Assembly: GCA_030220185.1 (NCBI GenBank)
Contig: JASPKZ010007525.1
Span: 372,001 to 436,000 of the forward strand
Direction of reading: 5' to 3'
Origin: Diploptera punctata
Lineage: Eukaryota; Arthropoda; Insecta; Blattodea; Blaberidae
Length of the DNA: 64,000 bases
Position numbers and translations under genes: made by a program. This document shows, in pieces, positions 23,371 through 24,589 of this stretch; the stretch's first letter is position 1, and each line of letters begins with the position of its first letter. The notes under the pieces were generated by a model that was not told the origin of the DNA, made no database searches, and saw only the letters and a list, made by a program, of their open reading frames with translations.

Positions 23371-23445
23371 AACACAGGTGATGATTTTATTATTAATTTA
23401 ACACTTCTCATTGAAGGATAAATTATATTTGAAGAGAAAAATTTT

Positions 23446-23492
23446 CGCCTAGACCGGGACTCAAACCCGGGACCCTTGGCTTTCCGGGCCAT
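23446..23492 (-). tRNA. Truncated tRNA-like 3' half
   Basis: Reverse complement of the T arm and anticodon 3' strand of the neighbouring copies; breaks off at ccgggcc and continues into catttgccatttgcaaag. Confidence 0.5.
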
Positions 23493-23588
23493 TTGCCATT
23501 TGCAAAGATAGAAGCTATGGTTTCAAGCATTTGGCACGAGGGAATTACAACGTACATAAGAGAAAAATTTGCGTCTAGATCGTAACTC

Positions 23589-23662
23589 GCCTCGGTAGCT
23601 CAGTTGGTAGAGCACTTGGCCTGGAAAGCCAAGGGTCCCGGGTTCGAGTCCCGGTCTGGGCG
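23589..23662 (+). tRNA. tRNA-like sequence, GGA anticodon position
   Basis: Acceptor GCCTCGG with TCTGGGC, D arm GCTC-AGTTGGTA-GAGC, anticodon arm TTGGC-CTGGAAA-GCCAA, T arm CCGGG-TTCGAGT-CCCGG. Intact A and B boxes. Predicted Ser-GGA by loop position, but no long variable arm. Confidence 0.6.
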
Positions 23663-23886
23663 AAAATTTTTCTCTTCAAATATAATTTATCCTTCAATGA
23701 GAAGTATTAAATTAATAATAAAATCGTCAATAGACGCCCTACTGGCTATAAAGTAGTGTTAAATTCCCAATAAATGTCTTAACTAAGAAGCCGCCATTTG
23801 CAAAGATAGAAGCTATGGTTTCAAGCATTTGGCACGAGGGAATTACAACGTACATAAGAGAAAAATTTGCGTCTAGATCGTAACTC

Positions 23887-23960
23887 ACCTCAGTAGCTCA
23901 GTTGGTAGAGCACTTGGCCCGGAAAGCCAAGGGTCCCGGGTTCGAGTCCCGGTCTAGGCA
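23887..23960 (+). tRNA. tRNA-like sequence, GGA anticodon position (tandem copy)
   Basis: Same as the preceding unit with loop CCGGAAA (C33 instead of the usual T33). Ends TCTAGGCA. Confidence 0.6.
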
Positions 23961-24589
23961 AAAATTTTTCTCTTCAAATATAACACAGGTGATGTTGAAA
24001 AATTCCACAATAACTTTAATTCTATAAACTCTCCTTGAATTCTACTCTCAAATTGCTGTAATAATTGATCCTGTTTTAAAATTTATCTACCACACAATTA
24101 TTTTACAGTCTCTTACAAGTCCACGTGCCAAAGTTTCTTTTCTTTCATGGCTCACTGTATTGCTTTCACCTCACAACTCAACTGCTCTTGACCCTCACAA
24201 CAGATTATATAGGTGGGGAAGGGAATTTCTCGGCTCCCAATCTAGACTTTTCCCGTAAGGCAGCTTGTGGCATAGAACCTTCCTCACAGATGCAGTAGAG
24301 GCATACAGAAATCTCTGGAACGGAGATCTAGATGCATTGATGATTTGTGCAAGTCTTCGACTCACAAGTTGGTGACTCACAAATCTATTTCTACCATTGT
24401 GAGATCTCTATTCTCGCTGTCACCTGCAAATTTCAAATGTCACTAGTACGATATGTCACAATATTAAGCACTGCATGGAAATGGCTTTGACAATTGAATT
24501 CAGTTTTGTTAATGGGCACAGCAACAACTTCTTAGCAATCCTAATGCCTTCGCTGATGTTCTTTTTATCGATGAGACATTGTTCTCCGA

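What the first reader, a model, noticed from the sequence alone, without database searches (positions are those of the whole stretch)
23384..23981. tRNA-carrying elements built like Penelope elements (family D)
At least ten insertions carry a complete tRNA-like sequence inside a unit of about 300 bp. Units occur inverted (35755, 46204, 49543, 60249), inverted plus tandem (23384) or single (51248). They are flanked by 10-13 bp target duplications, the same size as those of the hammerhead PLEs here. No hammerhead or reading frame is seen. PLEs depend on tandem or inverted terminal repeats and ribozyme cleavage. In family D the tRNA sits in the corresponding place, so RNase P and RNase Z cutting of a tandem transcript could replace hammerhead cleavage in releasing unit-length RNA, and the internal A/B boxes could supply a Pol III promoter. 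I know of no described element of this type. The architecture and TSDs are observed; the replication model is inference.
Basis: partly seen in the sequence, partly recalled or inferred. Interest (0 to 1): 0.87.

Follow-up and report, generated by a model that had tools for sequence, protein, structure and literature searches.

The report
tRNA-bearing satellites of Penelope retrotransposons
A large eukaryotic genome carries very many copies of a small jumping element that holds a tRNA-shaped RNA and no gene, and that appears to be copied by the machinery of Penelope retrotransposons although it lacks their self-cutting ribozyme.

Summary
At 23384-23981 a partial inverted and 1.6 direct copies of a ~300-nt tRNA-bearing unit lie between 13-bp target duplications; nine other insertions in the window carry complete tRNAs. 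Main-type tRNAs within 3 mismatches number 29,789 genome-wide.

The Penelope (PLE) reading is strengthened. Insertions are two head-to-head arms of up to 7.6 units. In 28 of 30 strictly mapped insertions one outer end is at site A, the other at site B, ~45 nt downstream. This is the PLE "tail" signature, explained by two internal starts of reverse transcription (PMC11167929). Hammerhead-type PLEs here follow the same rule (11 of 11 and 3 of 3 with both ends seen), and their target sites fit the element's motif (0 of 5000 shuffles). The tRNA fold shows compensatory changes.

RNase P/Z release is not supported: 37 of 56 arms exceed one unit, so they hold uncut tRNA, and none ends near the RNase P site. 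No PLE compared shares the element's end sequence; the helper is unnamed. The tRNA's role is open.

Verdict: a non-autonomous PLE variant; not found in the papers searched.

The parts
23371..23383 (.). left target-site duplication AACACAGGTGATG
   Evidence: sequence; scored
23384..23491 (-). inverted arm, outer end at site B, inner end inside the tRNA
23495..23981 (+). direct arm of about 1.6 units (period 298 here, 301 in the consensus), outer end at site A
23982..23994 (.). right target-site duplication AACACAGGTGATG
   Evidence: sequence
23588..23663 (+). complete tRNA fold (ARAGORN tRNA-Ser GGA; variable loop short by eye)
23887..23960 (+). tRNA fold of the second direct unit
23596..23607 (+). 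A box (TAGCTCAGTTGG)
   Evidence: motif recalled
23641..23651 (+). B box (GGTTCGAGTCC)
   Evidence: motif recalled
23667..23671 (+). T5 run, Pol III-type terminator, also part of the 3' strand of the long hairpin
23555..23587 (+). leader complementary to the tRNA 3' strand and trailer (alternative long hairpin)
23683..23729 (+). interval between site A and site B (tail) in the first direct unit
9310..9828 (.). old insertion, L=A, R=B, no TSD recovered
32544..32742 (.). short foldback insertion, L=B, R=A, TSD TAATTATTATGA
35752..36241 (.). insertion of the second subfamily, L=B, R=A, TSD ATATGGATGTGA
46204..46829 (.). foldback insertion, L=B, R=A, TSD AATATTAAAAAA
49541..50064 (.). foldback insertion, L=A, R=B, TSD AGAGACTAATGTAT
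51248..51387 (-). single 5'-truncated unit, A end, TSD TGATATATGA
59198..59562 (.). foldback insertion, R=A, left end incomplete, no TSD recovered
60250..60674 (.). foldback insertion of a third subfamily, R=A, L=B by eye
55735..56330 (.). distant relative (family E): tandem plus inverted, ~296-nt unit, L=A, R=B and TSD AGTAAGTGGTTT by eye
125..1000 (.). hammerhead PLE P1 insertion with the same A/B end rule; hammerhead core 859-897
6656..7546 (.). hammerhead PLE P2 insertion with the same A/B end rule; hammerhead core 7463-7499
   Evidence: (as L046)

Best explanation
Family D is a non-autonomous retrotransposon copied by the protein of Penelope-like elements. Shown: each insertion consists of two arms whose 3' (tail) ends face outwards, one ending at site A just 3' of the tRNA and the other at site B about 45 nt further 3', between duplications (median 12 bp) of a target that tends to AAAC-N12-GTTT. 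Inferred: a PLE dimer nicks both strands at this near-symmetric site; each target 3' end primes reverse transcription inside the RNA, one at A and one at B; each polymerase copies up to several units without a break, so the template is a circle or a multimeric transcript; the two cDNAs meet at scattered places, often with a few bases of overlap. The cloverleaf is kept by selection and lies next to the start site, where the hammerhead lies in the PLEs. My best guess for its role is a recognition or RNA-handling structure for template choice or stability (about 0.4), before a Pol III promoter (0.25), RNA end processing or circularisation (0.2) or something else (0.15).
For: End rule: 28 of 30 two-armed main-type insertions have one A and one B end, 14 in each orientation; in the looser first table all 33 insertions with both ends typed are A/B (16) or B/A (17). 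Second subfamily: 5 of 5 with both ends seen, of 9 examined. Hammerhead PLE P2: 11 of 11 loci with both ends seen, of 34 scanned (10 scored, L072 by eye); P1 3 of 3. PMC11167929 (parts 1 and 2 of 4 read; [quoted passage not shown] it cuts and extends both strands; hammerhead mutants still insert in vitro. TSDs: found in 33 of 33 D insertions tested, median 12, P2 10 of 10, median 13.5; 28 of the 33 typed insertions exceed the 99th percentile of random flank pairs. Target: PLE sites fit the D matrix, 0 of 5000 flank shuffles reach the observed mean, also without the +-1 positions; slid matrices score lower. Units of one insertion mismatch at 4.9% of between-array polymorphic sites, units of different insertions at 22.6%. 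tRNA: 18 of 21 pairs with changes on both sides, 127 such cells against 37.6 in shuffles and 11-31 in slid controls; D-type rows only, 15 cells against 5.8, 0 of 500. An 828-aa P2 frame has RVT_1 and GIY-YIG.
Against: No PLE with the same end sequence was found: D against P1, P2 and a third PLE scores within shuffles (91, 216 and 270 of 500), and D has no ORF. Two of 30 strict insertions break the rule: L028 (B/B, complex, no TSD) and L029 (A and mid-tail). The target motif is loose: leave-one-out, 53% of 32 D sites and 5 of 13 PLE sites reach p<0.05 singly, and P1 alone does not fit significantly (999 of 5000, n=3). No insertion sites of a non-PLE retrotransposon were scored as control. The alignment behind one search was fitted to the cloverleaf; in the D-type rows the number of pairs with double changes is only marginal (23 of 500) and the number of pair types is not above shuffles (456 of 500). 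The commonest subfamily has a C-U mismatch in its acceptor stem, and the tRNA alone is not predicted to fold as a cloverleaf (z -0.9). Circle or multimer is unresolved: 11 of 29 arrays with two or more complete units are uniform at 15 polymorphic columns, 18 are not.
Confidence: 0.85

Rival explanations
1. One reading: the tRNA replaces the hammerhead; RNase P and/or RNase Z cut tandem transcripts at the tRNA borders and release the RNA that PLE protein copies, perhaps after circularisation.
For: The cloverleaf including the acceptor stem shows compensatory changes; it sits just upstream of the start site, as the hammerhead does; 10 of 56 inner ends lie within 10 nt of the RNase Z site against 3.9 expected.
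Against: 0 of 56 inner ends within 10 nt of the RNase P site (3.9 expected); 37 of 56 arms exceed one unit, up to 2302 nt, so templates held uncut tRNAs. The RNase Z excess coincides with an AAAATTTT palindrome. Indels between units are at most 3 nt and show no variable joint.
Confidence: 0.12
2. The tRNA is mainly an internal Pol III promoter, making D the PLE counterpart of a SINE.
For: A box and B box are intact in window copies and visible by eye in diverged rows; main-type tRNAs are very abundant.
Against: A T5 run follows the tRNA and precedes site A (in one of 15 aligned rows, L48, it is displaced), so a terminated transcript would lack A and B; acceptor and anticodon stems, which promoter function does not need as far as I recall, also covary.
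Confidence: 0.2
3. An ordinary tRNA-derived SINE moved by a LINE, with inversions by twin priming.
For: Has a tRNA, TSDs, no ORF.
Against: No poly(A) or microsatellite 3' end; both outer ends are tail ends at two fixed sites, one of each; multi-unit arms; T5 right after the tRNA.
Confidence: 0.03
4. A foldback DNA transposon (MITE-like).
For: Long inverted arms and TSDs.
Against: Arms differ in length from 22 to 2302 nt, the two termini are different unit positions, single 5'-truncated copies exist.
Confidence: 0.02

Closest known systems
Hammerhead-bearing Penelope-like elements (P1 and P2 in this window; Poseidon of Anolis in PMC11167929)
   Same: Head-to-head and tandem copies, one A and one B outer end, TSDs of similar size, similar target-site preference, a structured RNA just upstream of the start site.
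   Different: D has no ORF and no hammerhead core in 4 unit types on both strands (one of them a partial unit); a tRNA fold takes that place; end sequences are not alike.
Metazoan retrozymes (PMC7229834; passages seen, including part of the abstract)
   Same: About 300-nt AT-rich units, dimers to large multimers, no own reverse transcriptase, TSDs longer than those of plant retrozymes.
   Different: Retrozymes carry a type I hammerhead and were shown as circular RNAs; D carries a tRNA fold and no RNA data are available.
Helenus (PMC10886601; passages seen)
   Different: Helenus is an LTR (TRIM) element with 4-5 bp TSDs, PBS and PPT; the paper says the predicted RNA structures do not support tRNA function.
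German cockroach SINEs Sbg1-Sbg9 (PMC9191728; passages and part 2 of 7 seen)
   Same: tRNA plus TSD, about 300 bp in some.
   Different: tRNA head at the 5' end, poly(A) or microsatellite tails; no two-site foldback ends in the passages seen.

Membership tests
Penelope-like elements (as a non-autonomous member) | Tail signature: outer ends at two adjacent internal start sites, one of each per insertion | tested here: met
   28 of 30, 5 of 5 with both ends seen in subfamily 2; PLE comparison 11 of 11 and 3 of 3
Penelope-like elements (as a non-autonomous member) | Tandem and inverted (pLTR-like) copies with TSDs | tested here: met
Penelope-like elements (as a non-autonomous member) | Same target-site preference as resident PLEs | tested here: met
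   (P2 clear; P1 alone inconclusive; no non-PLE control)
Penelope-like elements (as a non-autonomous member) | RT and GIY-YIG reading frame | tested here: not met
   no frame of 110 aa or more in the element; so it is not an autonomous PLE
Penelope-like elements (as a non-autonomous member) | Hammerhead ribozyme in the repeated end | tested here: not met
   no CTGANGA...GAAA core in 4 unit types, both strands; Rfam none, though Rfam also misses the PLE hammerheads
Penelope-like elements (as a non-autonomous member) | Sequence descent from, or end identity with, a PLE | tested here: not met
   three PLE families compared; only a sample of the PLEs of the genome
Metazoan retrozymes | Type I hammerhead in each unit | tested here: not met
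Metazoan retrozymes | Unit-length circular RNA | not testable with these tools
   no RNA data
tRNA SINE | Fixed 3' end with poly(A) or simple repeat; tRNA head at the 5' end | tested here: not met
tRNA SINE | Internal Pol III promoter boxes | tested here: met
   A and B boxes in window copies
Foldback DNA transposon / MITE | Identical fixed terminal inverted repeats | tested here: not met
   termini are different unit positions, A and B

The most novel reading that the evidence does not exclude
A lineage of PLE satellites in which a selected tRNA fold took over the hammerhead's place and directs host tRNA enzymes to make or close the template RNA, switching between the cloverleaf and a conserved ~30-bp hairpin that buries the tRNA's 3' strand; and in which the two PLE polymerases of one insertion are bound to take different start sites, one A and one B.
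Probability: 0.2. Interest if true: 0.9.

Novelty: new variant of a known kind. Interest (0 to 1): 0.77.

Why it matters
It would extend helper-dependent (satellite) retrotransposition to PLEs with a tRNA-based element, separate PLE mobility from the hammerhead in nature as in vitro work suggests, and give thousands of natural insertions that read out PLE chemistry: the one-A-one-B rule says that start-site choice is coupled between the two strands, which can be tested with purified PLE protein. It also explains how a genome can hold tens of thousands of tRNA-like loci that annotation might call tRNA genes or SINEs.

Tried and rejected
Two different RNA templates per insertion (L034, L045, arms 13-14% apart): withdrawn; the odd arms carry unshared random insertions and mismatches, most likely sequence errors in palindromes.

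Fixed RNA 5' end at the tRNA borders: not found for RNase P, ambiguous for RNase Z.

Sequence match between D ends and PLE ends: none in three families. PLE loci L046-L075 searched for D units: L050 holds a separate D copy, L064, L065 and L072 short pieces, the other 26 none; L072 is a PLE inserted into a D relative.

Hammerhead by strict pattern missed the PLE hammerheads because it required CGAAA; a looser core found that of P2 in L071, those of P1 were seen by eye.

Short hairpin around site A as a shared PLE feature: single-sequence folds were not significant for D (z -1.1) and mixed for PLEs (z -0.4 to -2.4); not used. Circular folding of whole units: z -4.5 (D), -2.6 (subfamily 2), -1.4 (E), 60 shuffles each; not used.

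Rolling circle or multimer: undecided.

Papers: by titles and abstract starts, the listings (open PMC library) show no tRNA-bearing PLE; Repbase and subscription papers were not searched.

Rows dropped: 3 of 134 units longer than 310 nt; indels within 3 nt of the unit ends; segments under 93% identity, clusters under 150 nt and clusters cut by a locus end; L056 as the copy of L046 on another contig; 1 of 33 D target sites (window 32544) left out of the matrix. Five of the 33 sites (window 35752, 46204, L034, L040, L045) were entered by hand, outside the strict set. The P2 pairs were chosen by eye; L072 was overlooked and added by eye. D copies come from the best 40 scored of 3,428 first-look candidates, so young copies are over-represented. 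Of 38 loci picked, 8 were fetched.

Full report
What is there. The window lies in an unnamed 3.12-Gb genome, 33% G+C in the window. At 23384-23981 an inverted partial unit is followed by one complete and one partial direct unit of a ~300-nt repeat; both direct units hold a complete tRNA fold; the whole is flanked by AACACAGGTGATG. Ten insertions in the window carry complete tRNAs, and a diverged member with the same anatomy lies at 55735-56330. Main-type tRNAs within 3 mismatches of a 64-mer number 29,789 genome-wide, those of a second type (73-mer) 3,468, and an exact 57-mer across the tail 3,386; the reversed controls give none. Several window insertions have near-identical copies on contig C2337, so the assembly may hold both haplotypes in places and copy numbers may be inflated.

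Anatomy of insertions. I fetched 37 loci around the best-scoring copies and mapped them and the window on a 301-nt unit consensus. Most insertions are minus copies followed by plus copies, head to head with tails outwards; arms of the strict set run from 22 to 2302 nt. Outer ends fall at two unit positions: A (about 22 nt 3' of the tRNA, after CTCTTCAAATAT) and B (about 45 nt further). In the strict set of 30 two-armed insertions 28 have one A and one B end, 14 with A on the left and 14 with A on the right; none is A/A; one is B/B (L028, complex, without TSD) and one A/mid-tail (L029). The looser table has 33 insertions with both ends typed, 16 A/B and 17 B/A; further ones there have an untyped or cut end or a single arm. 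In a second subfamily 5 of 9 loci show both ends and all 5 have one A and one B; in the other 4 an arm runs off the fetched stretch. TSDs were found in 33 of 33 insertions tested, 9-18 bp, median 12; of the 33 typed insertions, 28 exceed the 99th percentile of random flank pairs (9.4).

Comparison with resident PLEs. GIY-YIG sequences are very common here (217,961 first-look candidates, 150 scored); an 828-aa open frame in L077 has RVT_1 and GIY-YIG. Family P2 carries CTGAAGA...GAAA...C, the hammerhead core as I know it, about 47 nt upstream of its own site A (distance counted by eye). Of 34 PLE loci scanned, 11 distinct ones show both ends of a P2 insertion and all 11 have one A-type and one B-type end (TSDs of 10, of L072 by eye; L056 is a second copy of L046). 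Three P1 insertions in the window do the same. A matrix built from the flanks of 32 D sites (AAA and C in front of the TSD, TT after it; the reverse complement scores nearly as well, 2.15 against 3.48) fits the 13 PLE sites better than 5000 shuffles of their own flanks (0 reach the observed mean; the same without the +-1 positions) and scores lower when slid by 1-4 nt. P1 alone (3 sites) is inconclusive, single sites fit only loosely, and no non-PLE element was scored.

Mechanism. PMC11167929 (parts 1 and 2 of 4 read) reports that purified PLE protein cuts and extends both strands, starts reverse transcription at two adjacent sites inside the RNA, that the interval is the genomic tail, and that hammerhead mutants do not impair insertion in vitro. 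D insertions are what this enzyme would leave if each of the two target strands primes at a different one of the two sites. The paper saw no difference of start site between strands in bulk, so the one-A-one-B rule per insertion adds a constraint. PMC3846280 (passages) calls the tail optional on one of the inverted pLTRs, which agrees.

Template. In 131 units the indels against the consensus are 1-3 nt. The recurrent ones are at unit positions 48-50 (a CTT repeat, 7 arrays) and 291 (an A run, 5 arrays), with a few 1-nt ones in one or two arrays; no place shows joints of variable size. Units of one insertion are alike at 15 columns that differ between insertions (mismatch 0.049 against 0.226; three of these columns are one indel, and some are CpG-like, so old arrays may have mutated alike). 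The largest array, 13 complete units from both arms, is uniform; 11 of 29 arrays with two or more complete units are uniform (two of them the arms of L040), 18 are not. A circle or a near-uniform multimer both fit. Inner ends scatter: 0 of 56 within 10 nt of the RNase P site, 10 of 56 within 10 nt of the RNase Z site, 3.9 expected for each, the latter at AAAATTTT.

The tRNA. A covariance model of the cloverleaf found 98 matches in 21 sources. On 67 distinct rows 92% of cells pair, 18 of 21 pairs show changes on both sides and 127 cells are such changes, against 37.6 in shuffles and 11-31 in slid controls. As this alignment was fitted to the model and could mix separate tRNA captures, I repeated the count on the 11 D-type rows aligned by MAFFT: 15 cells against 5.8 (0 of 500), 5 pairs against 3.3 (23 of 500), pair types not above shuffles (456 of 500). 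D and E share descent in the trailer and tail (0 of 500), which suggests that one lineage kept a cloverleaf through large divergence.

An unexplained second structure. The leader is complementary to the tRNA 3' strand and trailer; in the main type the predicted minimum is this long hairpin, not the cloverleaf (z -6.8); the tRNA alone folds no better than shuffles (z -0.9). The duplex is stronger than shuffles in 11 of 15 copies tested at z -2.7 or lower and not in L72a, L72b, L48 and the 56.1-kb copy (those shuffles keep base composition only). The two structures compete for one strand; whether this is a switch or a fossil of a foldback origin is open.

Verdict. The element is best called a non-autonomous, tRNA-bearing PLE satellite: its insertions look like PLE insertions in end rule, TSD and target site, it lacks ORF and hammerhead, and its helper is not named. 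The RNase P/Z step remains a guess.

Noticed in passing
window 23555-23676 and relatives: Leader and tRNA 3' strand plus trailer can form a ~30-bp hairpin that competes with the cloverleaf; kept in 11 of 15 copies tested.
   Followed up: partly
window 55735-56330: Family E, an older relative (7,590 first-look candidates genome-wide, 40 scored) with a tRNA of another type and the same A/B ends.
   Followed up: partly
L072:749-2245: A P2 PLE sits inside a D-relative copy with TSD AGAAAAATATG, giving relative ages.
   Followed up: no
L034:284-850 and L045:857-1734: One arm of each palindromic array is full of unshared small insertions, probably sequence errors in long hairpins.
   Followed up: yes
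window 18449-19118: Four tandem copies of a 165-170 bp unit, not examined.
   Followed up: no
window 61507-62638 and 10144-10361: Large inverted repeat with reading frames (LQREAIEIFKHKNSFNRKEESL...) that look, from memory, like the C-terminal part of another PLE type, with an internal 84-bp duplication.
   Followed up: no
window 859-897, 7463-7499, 55093-55131: PLE hammerhead cores that Rfam does not report, at E up to 5 over the window and up to 10 in short stretches for the first two.
   Followed up: partly
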